A stretch of 6,032 bases of DNA from Candidatus Hydrogenedentota bacterium (GTDB lineage Bacteria; Hydrogenedentota; Hydrogenedentia; Hydrogenedentiales; GCA-2746185): positions 1-6,032 of the forward strand of contig DTSJ01000018.1 in assembly GCA_012965445.1 (NCBI GenBank), in the 5' to 3' direction. Position numbers and translations under genes: made by a program. Positions 1 through 5,938 of this stretch are shown in pieces (the stretch's first letter is position 1; every line of letters starts with the position of its first letter). The notes below the pieces were generated by a model that saw only the letters and a list, made by a program, of their open reading frames with translations, had not been told where the DNA came from and did no database searches.

Positions 1-615
1 GGCGCGGGGGATCGGGTATGCGCCAAGGCTCGCGAGATGATCATTGTAGAGTTGACAGTCGACGAATTTGATACCGATCATCTCGCCATACTGCATCAGG
101 GCCCAGAACGCCAGCTTGGAGACATCGCTTTGCTTCGAGAACATCGATTCGCCGAAGAAGCAGTCTCCCAGAGAAAGGCCGTAGAGTCCGCCCACGAGTT
201 TATCGCCGTCCCAGCATTCGACGGAGTGGCCGATGCCAGATTCGTGCAATGCGAGGTAGGCGTTGATCATGTCTTCGGTGATCCAGGTTCCGTCCTGGCC
301 CCGCCTTGGAACGCGTGCGCATTGGCGAACAACGGCTTCAAAGTCCGTATCCATCGACAAACGATAGGTACTTTTCCCGTAGACTTTTCGAAGACTGCGC
401 GAGGGCCGAAACTCCTCCGGACGGATCACCATTCTCGGATCGGGGGACCACCACATGAGCGGATCGCCCTCGCTGTACCACGGGAATATACCCATCGAAT
501 AGGCCAGCACGATTCGTTCGGGAGTGAGGTCGCCTCCGACGGCGAGCAGGCCTTCTTCGTCAGCGTTCTCTGGCGACGGAAAGGACAGCGCATCGGATAG
601 CATGTAGACGGTCAT
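1..615 (-). CDS. aat: Leucyl/phenylalanyl-tRNA--protein transferase (3' end cut by window edge)
   Basis: Cytoplasmic aminoacyl-transferase that moves Leu or Phe from its tRNA to the N-terminal Arg or Lys of a protein, creating a primary N-degron. The first 205 residues are visible; the family is usually about 230 residues, so roughly the last 20 to 30 lie beyond position 1. Family motifs seen in order: FPSPE (12-16), GLLAVGGDL (22-30), GIFPWY (42-47), WWSPDPR (55-61), GTWIT (near 124-128), HSVE (about 150), LVGGLYG, FFGESMFS and DCQ (186-188). Asp186 and Gln188 match the residues implicated in catalysis in the E. coli enzyme. I chose the ATG at 615 because the N-terminus then aligns with E. 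coli Aat up to FPSPE; an ATG at 603 is a weaker alternative. There is no strong Shine-Dalgarno sequence. The start lies 8 bases after the clpA TAG, so translational coupling is likely. Identification is very secure. Confidence 0.97.
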   Translation of the reverse strand, partial: MTVYMLSDALSFPSPENADEEGLLAVGGDLTPERIVLAYSMGIFPWYSEGDPLMWWSPDPRMVIRPEEFRPSRSLRKVYGKSTYRLSMDTDFEAVVRQCARVPRRGQDGTWITEDMINAYLALHESGIGHSVECWDGDKLVGGLYGLSLGDCFFGESMFSKQSDVSKLAFWALMQYGEMIGIKFVDCQLYNDHLASLGAYPIPRA

Positions 616-623
616 TGCTTCGC

Positions 624-2864
624 CTACGATTGCTTCGGCGTATACGCAAACTCAAGCGCGTCGTCAGCGAGCGTTACCGCGACGTGTCCGCCATTGGCGA
701 GTTTGCCGAAAAGCAATTCGTCTGAAAGTTGCGTCTCGATTTCACGCTGCATGAGTCGGTCGAGCGGCCGTGCGCCCAGAACGCTGTCGTAGCCTTTCTC
801 TGCCAACCACTGTCGTGCGTCATGATGTAGATCGAGCGTTACGTTGCGCGATGAGAGTTTGGACTGAACTCGAGCCACGAACTTATCGACGACTTTCAGG
901 ACGACTTCCATCGGAAGGGATTCGAAACTGACGATCGCATCGAGACGATTGCGAAATTCGGGCGAGAAGGTTTTTTCGATGGCCTTTCGGCTTTTGTGTT
1001 GACTCTCGTCTGAAGCGGATGAAAATCCAATCGAATTGGCGGCGAGTTCGCGCGCGCCCGCGTTGGATGTCATAATCAAAACGACGTTGCGGAAATCCGC
1101 GTGCTTGCCCATATTGTCCGTTAGGGCCGCATGATCCATGATCTGAAGCAGAATATTATAGACATCGGGATCGGCTTTTTCGATCTCGTCGAGAAGCAGT
1201 ACACAATACGGATTCTTGCGAATCTCATCGGTCAACTGACCACCCTGATCATAGCCGACGTAGCCGGGAGGCGCGCCGATCAGTCTGGCGACGGCGTGTT
1301 TCTCCATGTACTCGCTCATATCGAAGCGGAGAAAGTTTACGCCGAGTACTGATGCCAATTGTTTTGCCAACTCCGTCTTGCCGACACCGGTTGGTCCGGT
1401 AAACAGGAACGATCCCACGGGACGATCTTCGGGACCAAGGCCCGCGCGTGAACGCTTGATCGCTGTTGCAATGACGTTGATAGCCTCCTCTTGTCCGTAG
1501 ACCTGCGCCTTTAAATCGGATTCCAGACTCGCGAGGCGATTGCGGTCATCATTGGATACGGTGCGCACCGGAATGCGCGCCATTTCTGCGACGATTTTTT
1601 CAATATCTAGGGGGCGAATCGTCTTGCGCGTTTTTTTCGTCATCATTCGTATGTTTGCGCCCGCTTCGTCGAGTACGTCGATTGCTTTGTCAGGCAGGAA
1701 GCGATCCGATATGTGACGCGCTGCAAGTTCCGCCGCAGTTTTCAGCGCGGAATCAGTAAACGTAATATCGTGGTGTTCTTCGTAGCGGGACTTTAGTCCG
1801 CGCAGAATACGCACGGTTTCCTCAACCGTTGGTTCGTCGACATCGATTTTCTGGAAACGACGGAGGAGCCCCTTGTCCTTCTCAAAACTCTGCTTGAATT
1901 CGTCGTACGTAGTCGCGCCGATGCACCTCAGTTCGCCCGAAGAAAGAATCGGCTTGAGCATGGTGGACGCATCCATCTGCGAACCTGTGGTTGAACCAGC
2001 TCCCACAACTGTGTGGATTTCATCGATGAACAGAATCGTTTTATCACGGTCTTTCAAGGCTTTGAGCACCGATTTCATTCGTGCCTCGAAGTCGCCGCGG
2101 TAGCGCGTCCCGGCGAGTAGCGCGACCATATCCAGGCGCAGAATCTCAACACCTTCCATAATCTTCGGGATGCGCCCTTCGTGGATACGCAGCGCAATGC
2201 CCTCAACCATCGCCGTTTTGCCCACGCCCGGTTCACCGACAAAGACAGGGTTGTTCTTTCGGCGACGGCACATGACGCGAATCGCGCGTTTCAGTTCGGC
2301 GTCCCGCCCAATCAGCGGATCGATCTTGTTTTCGGCTGCCAGCGTCGCCAGATTATCGGTAAAGCGCAGAATAGGATCTTTTTTGGATTCGGGGGAATCC
2401 TCGTCCAGCAGATCGTCAAATTCCAGCCCGGACTCGTCGTCATCGTCATGCGAGATCGCCTTCAATACGTCGAGTCTCGTAACCCCTTCTTCGGCGAGGA
2501 AATAAGCAGCATGCGAATCTTCCTCCTCAAAGATGGAGGCGAGAACATCGCCGTTGTCCACCTGCCCTTTTCCTGAGAACTGGACATGCGAGAGGGCGCG
2601 ATTCATCAGCCGCTCAAAGGATACGGTCTGCTGGACGATCAGTTTGTAGTCGTCGGGTACAGACTCCTGGTCGTTGTCCAGAAACGTATTCAGCCGTTCA
2701 CGCAGACTATCAATATCTGCGCCGCATTCGATCAGGACGTCCTGGCCGTAGTTGTCTTCCAGCAAGGCGTACAGGACATGCTCGGCGCACAAATATTCAT
2801 GACGCCGCTGCTGTGCCTCGTCTATCGCAGCCTTTAATACGTGTTCGGTTTCTTTACTTAACAT
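624..2864 (-). CDS. clpA: ATP-dependent Clp protease ATP-binding subunit ClpA
   Basis: AAA+ unfoldase, 746 residues, close to the family length. It forms a hexamer that unfolds substrates, including those handed over by ClpS, and threads them into ClpP. Layout: Clp N-domain (about 1-138), acidic linker (140-160), first AAA+ module with Walker A GEPGVGKT (210-217), pore-loop region GTRYRG (252-257) and Walker B ILFIDE (277-282), then a second module with Walker A GPTGVGKT (490-497), pore loop GYVG (534-537), Walker B VLLLDE (555-560) and sensor-2 GAR (697-699). The IGF tripeptide at 612-614 is the ClpP-docking loop. There is no long coiled-coil middle domain, which excludes ClpB, and no ClpC-type insertion; together with clpS and aat nearby this supports ClpA. 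The start ATG has only a weak upstream AGG. A 78-bp spacer separates it from the CDGSH gene. It ends in TAG, with TGA in frame four codons later, overlapping the aat start. Confidence 0.97.
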   Translation of the reverse strand: MLSKETEHVLKAAIDEAQQRRHEYLCAEHVLYALLEDNYGQDVLIECGADIDSLRERLNTFLDNDQESVPDDYKLIVQQTVSFERLMNRALSHVQFSGKGQVDNGDVLASIFEEEDSHAAYFLAEEGVTRLDVLKAISHDDDDESGLEFDDLLDEDSPESKKDPILRFTDNLATLAAENKIDPLIGRDAELKRAIRVMCRRRKNNPVFVGEPGVGKTAMVEGIALRIHEGRIPKIMEGVEILRLDMVALLAGTRYRGDFEARMKSVLKALKDRDKTILFIDEIHTVVGAGSTTGSQMDASTMLKPILSSGELRCIGATTYDEFKQSFEKDKGLLRRFQKIDVDEPTVEETVRILRGLKSRYEEHHDITFTDSALKTAAELAARHISDRFLPDKAIDVLDEAGANIRMMTKKTRKTIRPLDIEKIVAEMARIPVRTVSNDDRNRLASLESDLKAQVYGQEEAINVIATAIKRSRAGLGPEDRPVGSFLFTGPTGVGKTELAKQLASVLGVNFLRFDMSEYMEKHAVARLIGAPPGYVGYDQGGQLTDEIRKNPYCVLLLDEIEKADPDVYNILLQIMDHAALTDNMGKHADFRNVVLIMTSNAGARELAANSIGFSSASDESQHKSRKAIEKTFSPEFRNRLDAIVSFESLPMEVVLKVVDKFVARVQSKLSSRNVTLDLHHDARQWLAEKGYDSVLGARPLDRLMQREIETQLSDELLFGKLANGGHVAVTLADDALEFAYTPKQS

Positions 2865-2942
2865 AATGCTGTCTACCTGCGGCCCCGCAACAGCGACCGT
2901 CTGTCTAGTATGTACTACAACTCCCCAAAGGGATTCATTCGT

Positions 2943-3179
2943 TTAGAGCTTTCCGTGGCTTCCATCGCAAAACGGGGGCGATTTTGTTGCCTTGCAGTTG
3001 CACATGGTCCCTTTTTGCGGCTCTGTCACTTCCAGCATTTTGGGCGTAATCCCCGTGCCGCTGTGCGAGCCGTCGCACCAAGGCTGGTTTTTCGAACGAC
3101 CACACGCGCACCAGAAATACTTGCCCGGTTCCAGATCTACTGTTTCCGGTACCTTTGCATACACTATCGGCTCTGCCAT
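2943..3179 (-). CDS. Small dual-motif CDGSH iron-sulfur (NEET-type) protein
   Basis: Protein of 78 residues with two copies of the CDGSH zinc-finger-like motif C-x-C-x2-(S/T)-x3-P-x-C-D-G-S-H. The first has Cys24, Cys26, Cys35 and His39; the second has Cys60, Cys62, Cys71 and His75. In this family each three-Cys, one-His set binds one redox-active, labile [2Fe-2S] cluster, so two clusters per chain are expected. No signal peptide or membrane segment is visible, which suggests a cytosolic protein. Bacterial members of this tandem class are small and their exact roles are poorly known; electron or cluster transfer and redox sensing have been proposed. A strong GAGGAG ribosome binding site supports the ATG at 3179. 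The gene sits between clpS and clpA on the same strand, so co-transcription with the N-degron genes is likely. A functional link to proteolysis is only inference. It ends in TAA. Confidence 0.93.
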   Translation of the reverse strand: MAEPIVYAKVPETVDLEPGKYFWCACGRSKNQPWCDGSHSGTGITPKMLEVTEPQKGTMCNCKATKSPPFCDGSHGKL

Positions 3180-3185
3180 TTCTCA

Positions 3186-3191
3186 CTCCTC
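3186..3191 (-). promoter_or_regulatory. Ribosome binding site of the CDGSH gene
   Basis: On the minus strand GAGGAG lies 6 bases before the ATG at 3179. It is the best Shine-Dalgarno match in the minus-strand cluster and fixes the start of the CDGSH gene. The clpS, clpA and aat starts have much weaker matches, so this small gene may be the best translated of the four. Confidence 0.7.
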
Positions 3192-3203
3192 ATATCGTGA
3201 AAA

Positions 3204-3269
3204 GACTCAAAACTAGGTCAAACTTACCTCAAACTTACCTCAAAACCAGGTCAAACTTAGGTCAACAGC
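3204..3269. repeat. Six tandem 11-bp repeats between clpS and the CDGSH gene
   Basis: Reading the plus strand, six contiguous 11-bp units begin at 3204, 3215, 3226, 3237, 3248 and 3259. The consensus is ASSTCAAACTT (S is G or C). TCAA at unit positions 4-7 is identical in all six. Units 2 and 5 are identical (AGGTCAAACTT), unit 3 differs only by CC for GG, and units 1, 4 and 6 are more degenerate. The array fills most of the spacer between the two genes and touches the last base of the clpS TAG. On the minus strand each unit reads AAGTTTGASST, so TTGACC (resembling a -35 element) recurs. GG-type and CC-type units can pair as AGGT/ACCT, but only over 4 bp. It could be an operator with sites one helical turn apart, a slippage array, or a weak RNA structure. 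Function is unknown. Confidence 0.85.
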
Positions 3270-3583
3270 TACTCAGGTTCTATCGAACATTTCAATGGAA
3301 ACCCTTGTTTCTCGGCTGCCTGATGAACGGTCTTAATTTTCGTTTCTGCTATCGAGGCAGTATACACACCGGCAATTCCGATGCCTTTATTGTGGACGTT
3401 TAGCATAATTTCGATCGATTGCGTACTGGATTTGCGAAATATCGACTCCAGGATCATAATCACAAATTCCATCGATGTGTAGTGATCATTGTGCAGCAAT
3501 ACCTTATAACGTTTCGGCCGCTGGACTTCATTCCGCGGCTTCGTCTGCACCTCACCTTCATTTTCGTCTTCAAAATCGCTCAT
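3269..3583 (-). CDS. clpS: ATP-dependent Clp protease adaptor ClpS
   Basis: Protein of 104 residues, the usual size, that binds N-terminal Leu, Phe, Tyr or Trp and delivers the substrate to the ClpA N-domain. Residues 1-24 are a polar, acidic N-terminal extension, as expected for the flexible delivery tail. The folded core starts at YKVLLHND (26-33). Pocket residues by alignment with E. coli ClpS: Asn32 (Asn34), Asp33 (Asp35), Met38 (gatekeeper Met40) and His64 (His66). His34 replaces the second acidic residue of the usual NDD. Further core motifs are MEFV (38-41), the MLNVH segment (60-64), GVYT (72-75) and AETK (79-82). No alternative start exists between the ATG at 3583 and the preceding in-frame stop. 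The nearest Shine-Dalgarno-like sequences are weak or badly spaced. It is the first gene of the minus-strand cluster. It ends in TAG at the conserved family end point, with TAA four codons further on. Confidence 0.96.
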   Translation of the reverse strand: MSDFEDENEGEVQTKPRNEVQRPKRYKVLLHNDHYTSMEFVIMILESIFRKSSTQSIEIMLNVHNKGIGIAGVYTASIAETKIKTVHQAAEKQGFPLKCSIEPE

Positions 3584-3760: not shown

Positions 3761-3766
3761 AAGGAG
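3761..3766 (+). promoter_or_regulatory. Ribosome binding site of the ECF sigma factor gene
   Basis: AAGGAG lies 6 bases upstream of the ATG at 3773. It favours that ATG over the TTG at 3770 or the in-frame ATG at 3782. A strong, correctly placed site suggests the gene was, or is, translated. Confidence 0.75.
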
Positions 3767-3772
3767 AGATTG

Positions 3773-4156
3773 ATGCTAACGATGTTACGAACAGATGCAG
3801 GGCTTGTCCGTCGGGTATTGGCAGGACATTCACGCAGTTTTGACGAGCTGGTTCGCCGCCATCTCACCATGACTTACGGGATCGCCTTCAGCTACACCCG
3901 CAATCACGCGGACGCAGAAGATTTGAGCCAGGAAGCAATGCTCAAAGCCTTCGTGTCTCTGGACACCCTGCGCGAGCCGAAGAAATTCGGACACTGGCTA
4001 AGCGTCATCACCCGGAATCTTGCACTGAGATACGGCCGAAAACTCCGCAATGAACGAAAAGCTGCGAAGGAAAGCGCCGAACAGCCCCGCGACCTCAACA
4101 CCGCTGCCTACGACGACATTCGTGAACTGCTCGAAGAACAAATCATCGAACTGTAG
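3773..4156 (+). CDS. ECF-type RNA polymerase sigma factor, region 2 portion ending at an in-frame TAG
   Basis: The 127 codons before the first TAG encode sigma-70 region 2, which binds the RNA polymerase clamp and recognises the -10 element. Seen: an N-terminal helix VRRVLAGHSRSFDELVRRH (12-30), the region 2.2 signature DAEDLSQEAMLKAF (47-60) and the region 2.3/2.4 segment with Phe72, Trp75 and ITRNLA (79-84). A polar linker then runs to EEQIIEL (121-127). Normal ECF factors continue into region 4. Here TAG intervenes, but region 4 follows at once in the same frame. As a stand-alone product this would be a sigma factor lacking region 4 and unlikely to recognise a -35 element normally. The start is set by AAGGAG at 3761-3766. 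It is transcribed away from clpS. The family call is firm; whether translation really ends at this TAG is open. Confidence 0.85.
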   Translation: MLTMLRTDAGLVRRVLAGHSRSFDELVRRHLTMTYGIAFSYTRNHADAEDLSQEAMLKAFVSLDTLREPKKFGHWLSVITRNLALRYGRKLRNERKAAKESAEQPRDLNTAAYDDIRELLEEQIIEL

Positions 4157-4339
4157 CCCATTCCCCGCGAAGTCCTTATGCTCCACTACTTCTCCGGAAA
4201 AACGACACGCGAAATCGCCTCGTCAATGAACGTCTCCTAGGCGGCCGTCCTGAAACGACTCCAACGCGCGCGGGAAGTACTCGGTGCTAAACTCATTTCC
4301 GATCTGAACGTACCACCGCGTTCAAAAGACGAGGCCGAC
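4157..4339 (+). other. Sigma-70 region 4 coding segment between the two interrupted parts
   Basis: In frame with the upstream sigma factor, this segment encodes PIPREVLMLHYFSGKTTREI, then ASSMNVS, a TAG at 4238-4240, and AAVLKRLQRAREVLGAKL. This is a recognisable region 4.2 helix-turn-helix, which contacts the -35 element. The TAG falls at the turn into the recognition helix, where family members commonly have a polar residue such as Glu or Gln. The segment continues in frame into the membrane-anchored part at 4340. No plausible independent start with a ribosome binding site is seen, so it is not a separate gene. Confidence 0.8.
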
Positions 4340-5938
4340 ATGAATCGCTCAGCCATTATGAAGTCGATCATCGCTACTGGAATCTCTTGGAATATCGCGG
4401 GCGCGACCTGGGCAGAAACTGCGGCGAGTACGCTGTTCAGCGGAAAGGGAATGGCAGCAGCCGTGTTATTCGCGGGCATCATAGCATCCTATCTTGCCCT
4501 GCCCTCCGCAAAGCCACTCCCGACTCCGGAACCGACGATCTCGACTGCTGGGGACGTAGTTGCGCCTTCCCCTGAAGAGGAAACCCCAATAACAATCGCA
4601 ACACCCTCAATCGAAATCGAAGCGGCCCCGGTCGTCGAAAATCTAGAACCAATCGCTGCCGTTTCTGTGGCAGTCCTGACTCCAGAACCGGAACTGCAAG
4701 TTGAGGCTAAGCCGGAAAGCCCATTGGCCGGAAATTGGACGATGTACACCCATGAAGGCAATGATCAGTTCGCAGACAATCGAGGCCAGATAAGATTTGT
4801 TGAAGAAAACGACACGCTGCATGTGGCCGGAGTTTCATATATGCACTTGGAAGGCGCGTTCGCGGGTGAAGAGGTCTACCTTGATTTCTCTCATGTAACC
4901 GAACCGGAACTCACCTACCGCGGGCGGCTGCAGGGTCGTCTGTCTGAAGATGGCAATGAGTTGAATGTATCTGGCTTCGTGACATGGGATTACAACGACG
5001 ACACTACATCGGTGTTCTATATTGATTTCGTCAGAATTGGCGATATGGAGAACCAGCGAAACGAAGGTATTGCGCTTGCAAAATCAAGGCTCAATACGCT
5101 GAAAGACGCCCTTCATGAATCCCTTAAACAAGAAGGGCGACCTGCAAAAAACCTGCGGGAATTGATACCCGATTATCTGGATGACAGGTCGCTGATCAAT
5201 TCCAATGCAGACGAGCGCATCGTCTACGCACAGGTCTGGGACGACTACAAGAAGCTACAGGAAGAGTCCTCGAACATCGGGCAATACTACGGTCCCCTCC
5301 ATCGGGAAGACCCAAGCGCCGAACTGCTGTTGAACTGGGAGCTAGAGCTGGAAGAAGCATGGGGCACTTACTTCCCCGGGGGATTCACCTTTCTCCACTT
5401 GACGAACACCGAGTTCAATTTCAGTTTAGCCGTAGACTTCTGGGGCTCGGCCTATGACGAGAATCCTTCCTATTCTTCCATCTACGTTGACACCTACGGA
5501 GAACAGGGCCAGACTGAGGCACGGCTTCAGGCTTGCGCGAACAACCTGAAGCAACTCGGACTAACAATCAAAATGTTTGAAGGTGAGCACCCGAACCGAC
5601 TGGTTCCTCCCGGATTTCGCCAGGTGTACCCTGAATATATGCCCGATGCCCGTGTACTCATCTGTCCCGGTCAATCAGACGAAATCCTGAGCTACGAAAT
5701 CATCTACCCCGCATCCAGCGAAGAATACAGACGACAGGTTTACATTGAAGTCGAAGGCATCCCGCTGGAAGATGTGGATCCCGGTGCTGTAAACAGTCGT
5801 ATACCGCTCATCGTCGAGCTCCGCGAGTGTTCTGAATCCGGAGGCCGCAACGTGGAATTCGTAGATGGCCACGTCGAATGGATCGCAGACGCAGACTGGG
5901 ACCGCATCATCGGGCCCTACCTGGATTACCGCTACTAA
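4340..5938 (+). CDS. Membrane-anchored C-terminal part of the sigma factor fusion, with prepilin-like H-X9-DG-type domain
   Basis: Open frame of 532 codons from the first ATG after the second TAG. Residues 1-32 resemble the post-region-4 segment of ECF fusion proteins (Met, Lys, then Trp17 and Trp24). A hydrophobic helix at about 36-54 is the only membrane segment. Residues 55-128 are a Pro/Glu/Thr-rich extended linker. Residues 129-232 look beta-rich (GNWTMY start, then GRLSEDGNELNVSGFV), like a lipocalin-type barrel. Residues 242-290 hold a helix followed by ELIPDYL, resembling a degenerate prepilin-like half. Residues 394-532 contain CANNLKQLGLTIKMF (399-413), VYPEYMPDARVLICPG (429-444) and GGRNVEFVDGHVEW (501-514), typical of prepilin-type processing-associated domains; Glu499 stands where the H-X9-DG His is expected. 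No prepilin cleavage site is present. The ATG has only a weak GACGAGG upstream, so it is probably not a natural gene start. It ends in TAA. Confidence 0.75.
   Translation: MNRSAIMKSIIATGISWNIAGATWAETAASTLFSGKGMAAAVLFAGIIASYLALPSAKPLPTPEPTISTAGDVVAPSPEEETPITIATPSIEIEAAPVVENLEPIAAVSVAVLTPEPELQVEAKPESPLAGNWTMYTHEGNDQFADNRGQIRFVEENDTLHVAGVSYMHLEGAFAGEEVYLDFSHVTEPELTYRGRLQGRLSEDGNELNVSGFVTWDYNDDTTSVFYIDFVRIGDMENQRNEGIALAKSRLNTLKDALHESLKQEGRPAKNLRELIPDYLDDRSLINSNADERIVYAQVWDDYKKLQEESSNIGQYYGPLHREDPSAELLLNWELELEEAWGTYFPGGFTFLHLTNTEFNFSLAVDFWGSAYDENPSYSSIYVDTYGEQGQTEARLQACANNLKQLGLTIKMFEGEHPNRLVPPGFRQVYPEYMPDARVLICPGQSDEILSYEIIYPASSEEYRRQVYIEVEGIPLEDVDPGAVNSRIPLIVELRECSESGGRNVEFVDGHVEWIADADWDRIIGPYLDYRY

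What the first reader, a model, noticed from the sequence alone, without database searches (positions are those of the whole stretch)
3773..5938. ECF sigma factor fusion with two in-frame TAG codons and no other lesion
Sequence shows: sigma region 2, TAG at 4154-4156, most of region 4, TAG at 4238-4240, the end of region 4, then 532 further open codons, all in one frame (4340 minus 3773 is 567, divisible by 3). Both interruptions are amber; there is no TAA, TGA or frameshift. A gene decaying for long should show mixed lesions. The remaining explanations are two recent nonsense changes, amber decoding as an amino acid, a deliberately split product (truncated sigma plus membrane protein) or sequencing error. 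The second TAG sits in the region 4 helix-turn-helix, so readthrough would control whether -35 recognition exists.
Basis: partly seen in the sequence, partly recalled or inferred. Interest (0 to 1): 0.75.

Follow-up and report, generated by a model that had tools for sequence, protein, structure and literature searches.

The report
Recently broken membrane-tethered sigma factor gene
A gene for a transcription switch fused to a membrane sensor, in an uncultured Hydrogenedentota bacterium, carries two stop signals that most likely disabled it recently, and some of its relatives carry stops of their own at other places, so this looks like repeated gene loss and not a new way of reading the genetic code.

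Summary
In detail: frame 3773-5938 has exactly two interior stops, both TAG (codons 128, 156), and no frameshift. The window is a whole 6-kb contig of a Hydrogenedentota bacterium; its genome is not held. The gene encodes an ECF sigma factor fused to a probable membrane helix and sensor. Close relatives have Asp (Glu in one) and Gln at the two sites. Amber decoding is disfavoured: ClpS on the same contig ends in TAG at its conserved C-terminus, TAG ends 10 of 30 clpS genes read in the phylum, 0 of 68 phylum genomes has PylS above cut-off, and two ambers of two have a 14-22% chance. The decisive find is the relative beside clpS in G029: stops at other codons (TAA 123, TAG 538), again no frameshift. 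Another relative (P0087) ends at codon 121 although a 97% identical one reads on. So stops recur independently in a gene whose sigma part is still conserved. Best reading: young loss-of-function mutations in a fast-turnover family, the sensor half possibly still made from ATG 4340. Unexplained: three first stops fall within codons 122-128, leaving region 2 whole; convergent sigma2-only truncation is not excluded.

The parts
3761..3766 (+). Shine-Dalgarno AAGGAG before the first start; strongest of 33 ATG contexts in the gene (-8.8 kcal/mol)
3773..4156 (+). First open piece: sigma region 2 and the first helix of region 4, 127 aa, ending in TAG
   Evidence: the protein cluster of this piece (P0086) counts 2 contigs
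4154..4156 (+). In-frame TAG, codon 128; of 16 relatives aligned 12 have D, 1 E (P0008), 3 distant ones P
4157..4240 (+). Middle piece of region 4 (27 codons) ending in TAG
4238..4240 (+). In-frame TAG, codon 156, at the start of the last helix of region 4; of 16 relatives aligned 12 have Q (P0002-P0009, G029, G030, G003, P0035), 4 distant ones R
4241..4339 (+). Rest of region 4 and linker, open, in the same frame
4340..5938 (+). Longest open piece, possible restart ATG with GAGG (-5.9 kcal/mol, 4th of 33 ATGs); 532-aa membrane-sensor half
   Evidence: this Met is not conserved in relatives
4448..4504 (+). Most hydrophobic 19-residue stretch (residues 226-244), probable membrane helix
4730..5035 (+). 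All-beta domain (residues 320-421), perhaps a small barrel; only weak fold matches
5477..5935 (+). C-terminal domain (from residue 569) with NNxKQLGL-like and DGHV motifs; DUF1559 match below Pfam's cut-off
3269..3583 (-). clpS, divergent neighbour, ends SIEPE-TAG at the conserved C-terminus: evidence that TAG terminates here
624..2864 (-). clpA, ends in TAG; 75% identical to the G029 copy over residues 1-451

Best explanation
The locus is an ECF sigma factor gene, of a family with many copies in Hydrogenedentota, that has been inactivated recently by nonsense mutation. In intact relatives the protein is read as a one-piece regulator: sigma regions 2 and 4 in the cytoplasm, one membrane helix, an all-beta domain and a DUF1559-like C-terminal domain outside, so that the outer part would control the sigma in cis (inferred). 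In the window, translation from the strong start at 3773 would stop at codon 128 and give a 127-aa fragment with region 2 but no usable region 4 (inferred). The membrane-sensor half may still be made from ATG 4340 (inferred). The stops are young: the sigma part is still conserved at the usual rate, the frame is otherwise open, and relatives carry different stops of their own. Shown: the stops, their absence in intact relatives, their independent recurrence, TAG as terminator. Inferred: loss of function, restart, in-cis control.
For: Full-length uninterrupted relatives exist (P0002, P0004, P0005, P0006, P0008; G030; G003). The relative beside clpS in G029 has stops at other codons, TAA 123 and TAG 538, so the lesions arose separately and are not amber-only. 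P0087 ends after 121 residues although P0003, identical at 117 of those 121, continues. P0007 and P0009 have C-terminal tails unlike their relatives, which by eye look like frameshifts, and P0003 ends early. In G029 0 of 39 ABC_tran matches has a stop inside, and of 21 region 2 matches only this gene has an open frame under 150 aa. The sigma-to-C-terminal branch ratio is 0.24 for the window and 0.08 for G029 against 0.32 for the whole tree, so the sigma part has not decayed. TAG is an ordinary stop: window clpS and 10 of 30 clpS loci. PylS: 0 of 68 genomes above cut-off.
Against: Four nonsense codons and no frameshift in two genes is unlikely under plain neutral decay: 0.057, 0.011 or 0.0014 for assumed indel:substitution ratios of 0.05, 0.1 or 0.2 (the ratios are assumed, not measured here). 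Three first stops lie within codons 122-128, about 1.1% of the gene's nonsense target and 7% of that of codons 70-222, an interval chosen after the fact. An Asp codon cannot become TAG in one change, so codon 128 needs an intermediate. No close relative (core sequences are 58-68% identical in the sigma part) allows a dN/dS test. The own genome is not held, so a CUA tRNA there cannot be excluded.
Confidence: 0.74

Rival explanations
1. Convergent splitting: stops at the start of region 4 are kept because a free sigma region 2 protein, with or without a separate region 4-membrane-sensor protein, is useful, in the manner of the two-subunit SigO-RsoA sigma factor.
For: First stops at codons 128 (window), 123 (G029) and 122 (P0087) all leave a whole region 2 in a product of 121-127 aa. 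In G029 the next piece holds most of a region 4 match (PF08281 positions 8-54 of 54). A further sigma fusion, G005:C266, has a TAG in the linker before region 4. The SigO-RsoA precedent, with sigma4 and sigma2 split into separate proteins, is described in PMC8103513 (passages read).
Against: In the window region 4 is cut again at codon 156, and G029 is cut again at 538. Region 4 is not speeded up against region 2: branches 0.19 and 0.36 for the window, 0.041 and 0.057 for G029, tree totals 5.40 and 6.92. The search that found P0087 admits only short proteins. The possible G029 restart at TTG 702 has a weak ribosome site (-3.3 kcal/mol).
Confidence: 0.09
2. Amber decoding: TAG is read as an amino acid (glutamine-like, or pyrrolysine) at both codons, making or regulating a full-length sigma fusion.
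For: Frame open for 721 codons with only TAG inside; Q is the residue of close relatives at codon 156; the two TAG-terminated neighbours, clpA and clpS, each have a second stop four codons on.
Against: ClpS ends at TAG at the conserved C-terminus; G029 has TAA as well; PylS 0 of 68 over cut-off; no CUA among 23 tRNA genes read in G029, an incomplete set; codon 128 aligns with Asp, not Gln.
Confidence: 0.05
3. Gene fission: the sigma part is lost but the membrane-sensor half lives on from ATG 4340 as its own protein.
For: ATG 4340 has one of the better ribosome sites in the gene (4th of 33). The window breaks 10 of 83 sigma positions that are invariant in the other nine core sequences but 0 of 24 in residues 179-560. 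The same sensor part is joined to an anti-sigma zinc finger in P0085.
Against: The branch-length ratio shows no speeding-up of the sigma part; the 532-aa cluster counts one contig, the window; the Met is not conserved.
Confidence: 0.08
4. Assembly or sequencing error made one or both TAGs.
For: A 6-kb contig, probably from a metagenome, of unknown read depth.
Against: A second contig is counted in the cluster of the 127-aa protein; two stops 84 bases apart in one gene while 3.4 kb of neighbouring genes are open. No second contig is counted for the piece after the second TAG.
Confidence: 0.04

Closest known systems
ECF (group IV) sigma factors with C-terminal extensions (ECF41, ECF42 and CorE types)
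   Same: Regions 2 and 4 with a fused C-terminal part that may control activity; passages of PMC8103513 read
   Different: Here a membrane helix with beta and DUF1559-like domains, in an uncultured phylum; this copy is interrupted
Attenuating rpoS alleles of Escherichia coli, including an amber TAG at codon 33
   Same: Loss-of-function alleles recur in a sigma gene; K-12 strains may carry TAG, Glu, Tyr or Gln at one codon; passages of PMC2700278 read
   Different: RpoS is not an ECF fusion; here the stops fall inside region 4
[quoted passage not shown]
   Same: Regions 2 and 4 on separate chains is what the first stop alone would give; PMC8103513 passages
   Different: In the window region 4 is broken again, and there is no sign of a separate region 4 product
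Pyrrolysine or TAG=Gln (code 15) decoding
   Same: In-frame TAG in an otherwise open gene
   Different: TAG ends ClpS here, a TAA occurs in the G029 relative, no PylS above cut-off; the papers were seen only in a search listing with the start of their abstracts

Membership tests
ECF sigma factor (group IV) | Sigma70 region 2 | tested here: met
   PF04542, 61.5 bits against a cut-off of 24
ECF sigma factor (group IV) | Region 4 continuous with region 2 in one open frame | tested here: not met
   TAG at codons 128 and 156; PF08281 matches in full only when the stops are read as X
Pseudogene of a sigma-sensor fusion | Interior stops absent from intact relatives | tested here: met
Pseudogene of a sigma-sensor fusion | Relaxed constraint since the lesion | tested here: inconclusive
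   10 of 83 sigma invariants broken, the most of the ten core sequences, but the branch ratio is ordinary
Pseudogene of a sigma-sensor fusion | Mixed lesions, including frameshifts | tested here: not met
   No frameshift in the window or in G029; would fit a young lesion
Pyrrolysine-decoding organism | PylS | tested here: inconclusive
   0 of 68 phylum genomes over cut-off, 1 of 14 controls over it; own genome not held
Amber suppressor organism | tRNA with CUA anticodon | tested here: inconclusive
   None in the window, none among 23 tRNA genes of G029, an incomplete set
TAG reassigned throughout | TAG not used as terminator | tested here: not met
   clpS and clpA of the window end in TAG; clpS at the conserved end
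Two-subunit sigma factor (SigO-RsoA type) | Separate intact region 2 and region 4 chains | tested here: not met
   Region 4 is cut by the second TAG

The most novel reading that the evidence does not exclude
In a lineage of Hydrogenedentota, membrane-tethered ECF sigma factors are repeatedly cut by stop codons at the same structural place, the start of region 4, so that a free region 2 protein of about 121-127 aa is released, with the sensor half made separately or by leaky termination: a convergent conversion of one-piece tethered sigmas into split ones.
Probability: 0.09. Interest if true: 0.75.

Novelty: new member of a known kind. Interest (0 to 1): 0.3.

Why it matters
If the stops are plain loss of function, the locus is a clean example of rapid, repeated loss of an alternative sigma factor in an uncultured phylum, comparable to rpoS alleles in E. 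coli, and a warning against reading amber pairs in short contigs as recoding. If the clustering at codons 122-128 holds up with more copies, it would point to selection for a free sigma region 2, which is testable.

Tried and rejected
Amber or pyrrolysine decoding and reassigned TAG: disfavoured. Stops spread through the G029 assembly: not seen in the two families looked at (0 of 39 ABC_tran and 0 of 21 region 2 matches with a stop inside the domain). Region 4 decaying faster than region 2 on the window branch: not seen. Viral contigs: 14 pattern matches, none a relative. Plasmid records: 108 with distant sigma factors, all under 60% identity. Rfam scan of the window: nothing. Two apparent stops in the phylum survey proved to be ordinary gene ends: G003:C55 (a 718-aa open frame) and G004:C233 (after an ordinary sigma gene). 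An apparent TAG inside a ClpC-like match of G006 was also near its natural end; the one in G001:C133 was fetched but not examined. Fold search: 24 matches at E up to 0.001, sigma factors or their complexes; non-sigma matches were weak (PvdP tyrosinase 0.0019, GrlR 0.0055, a spirocyclase 0.0061, lipocalin and nitrobindin types 0.014-0.02). Literature: 0 papers hold 'ECF sigma factor' with 'hydrogenedent', 3 hold 'hydrogenedentes' with 'sigma factor' (listing only), 2 hold 'hydrogenedent' with 'pyrrolysine' (in PMC6146748 the passages show the words unconnected; PMC7203096 was not opened).

Full report
OBSERVATION. The frame 3773-5938 holds 722 codons with TAG at 128 and 156 and TAA at 722 and no other stop. 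The ORF list shows its two pieces of 60 aa or more: the 127-aa piece (listed as 128 aa, from a TTG one codon before the ATG) and 532 aa from ATG 4340. The window is a whole contig of 6,032 bases (the contig length given for P0001), and no genome is held for it. The first TAG lies inside region 4 and not before it: the PF08281 match begins at residue 118. In the AlphaFold model (mean pLDDT 72; blocks of the sigma part mostly 75 or more, but 49-56 around residues 101-120) codon 128 lies between helices 108-126 and 129-139, and codon 156 begins helix 156-178.

WHAT THE GENE IS. Regions 2 and 4 of an ECF sigma factor, a probable membrane helix at residues 226-244, a low-confidence stretch at 187-313, an all-beta domain at 320-421, and a C-terminal domain with a DUF1559 match below the cut-off and a DGHV motif. 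Fold matches at E up to 0.001 are sigma factors or their complexes; others are weak. P0085 joins the same C-terminal part (28% identity over 55% of the query) to an anti-sigma zinc finger, which supports a role of that part in controlling a sigma factor; this is inference.

THE ORGANISM. ClpA is 67% identical to G004 (a Hydrogenedentota genome reached through L004) and 75% to G029 over residues 1-451; ClpS is 66% identical to G029, the best of 56 genomes with a match.

THE TWO SITES IN RELATIVES. In the alignment of 16 relatives with the window, codon 128 is D in 12, E in P0008 and P in G003, P0035 and P0041; codon 156 is Q in 12 (P0002-P0009, G029, G030, G003, P0035) and R in 4. In the wider alignment more distant fusions have R, H, D or S at 156.

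IS TAG DECODED? ClpS and ClpA of the window end in TAG. In 30 clpS loci, taken from 56 genomes with a match, the protein ends at, or within a residue of, the same conserved place, with TAA in 10, TAG in 10 and TGA in 10. PylS (TIGR02367): 53 of 68 genomes give weak matches, none over the cut-off; 1 of 14 controls is over it. In G029, 24 tRNA-type matches were found, 22 over cut-off; ARAGORN reads 23 tRNA genes in these loci, none with CUA; the set is incomplete. Each TAG of clpA and clpS has a second stop four codons on, which I record as the one observation that fits leaky TAG.

RECURRENCE. A phylum search with an alignment of eight relatives matched 60 of 68 genomes; at most 16 candidates a genome were scored and 150 rows were listed (counted by eye), more not. 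Five of the 150 rows carry a stop; two of these are gene ends. The other three are interior: G029:C242 (TAA 123, TAG 538), G005:C266 (TAG in the linker before region 4) and G004:C207 (TAA just after region 4). G029:C242 lies beside clpS, as in the window, but in the other relative orientation. Of the 30 clpS loci, read with up to about 1.5 kb of flank and some cut by contig ends, only this one shows the sigma fusion. A search with the 127-aa piece found P0086, the window's own protein with 2 contigs counted, and P0087 of 121 aa, named as Hydrogenedentota by NCBI, on a 34-kb contig. P0087 agrees with P0003 at 117 of 121 residues and ends where P0003 continues. P0003 itself ends at 537 aa, and P0007 and P0009 end in tails unlike their relatives. 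The DNA of P0087 and P0003 was not seen, so that they end at stop codons, and not at a contig edge or frameshift, is inferred.

AGE AND CONSTRAINT. On a fixed tree of 17 sequences the terminal branches in the sigma part and the C-terminal part are 0.306 and 1.274 for the window (ratio 0.24) and 0.065 and 0.796 for G029 (0.08); the tree total gives 0.32. Region 2 and region 4 branches are 0.36 and 0.19 for the window (tree totals 6.92 and 5.40). So neither copy shows a decayed sigma part. Against this, the window breaks 6 of 50 and 4 of 33 positions that the other nine core sequences keep in codons 1-127 and 129-178, more than any other of the ten (the next, P0008, 3 of 47 and 2 of 32), and 0 of 24 in 179-560 (P0008: 7 of 31). 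This may reflect its early branching or a little relaxation.

CHANCE. 263 single changes in the gene give a stop, 97 of them TAG. With assumed indel:substitution ratios of 0.05, 0.1 and 0.2, two nonsense changes before any frameshift have a chance of 0.24, 0.10 and 0.04, and four, for the window and G029 together, of 0.057, 0.011 and 0.0014. Codons 122-128 hold about 1.1% of the nonsense target of the gene and 7% of that of codons 70-222. The clustering of three first stops there is suggestive but chosen after the fact, and P0087 was found by a search limited to short proteins.

CONCLUSION. Independent, different and apparently young nonsense codons fit repeated loss of function best, as is documented for rpoS in E. 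coli, where K-12 strains may carry TAG at codon 33 (PMC2700278, passages read). A restart at 4340 is possible. Convergent splitting at the start of region 4 is the boldest reading that remains open; SigO-RsoA shows that a sigma factor can work in two chains (PMC8103513, passages read).

Noticed in passing
window 3210-3265: About five copies of an 11-base repeat (AAACTTAGGTC) between the CDGSH gene and clpS, ending just before the clpS stop codon.
   Followed up: no
window 1-3583: N-end rule gene set aat-clpA-CDGSH-clpS in one row; a CDGSH gene also sits between clpS and clpA in L081/L167 (G004), L141 and L151.
   Followed up: partly
window 612-626 and 3257-3271: Both TAG-terminated genes have a second in-frame stop four codons later; that of clpA overlaps the aat start codon.
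   Followed up: partly
P0085 (protein, 632 aa): An anti-sigma zinc finger (zf-HC2) and a T2SSC-like part are fused to the same C-terminal sensor domain that the window gene has behind its sigma factor.
   Followed up: partly
L171 (G005:C266) and L170 (G004:C207): Two further sigma fusions of the phylum carry an interior stop, one in the linker before region 4, one just after region 4.
   Followed up: partly
P0087 and P0003: Nearly identical N-termini (117 of 121), one ending after codon 121 and the other at 537 aa: possibly segregating broken alleles.
   Followed up: partly
L108 2550-2661: By eye, a GC-rich hairpin with a T run follows the broken sigma gene of G029, so its terminator seems kept (sequence).
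   Followed up: no
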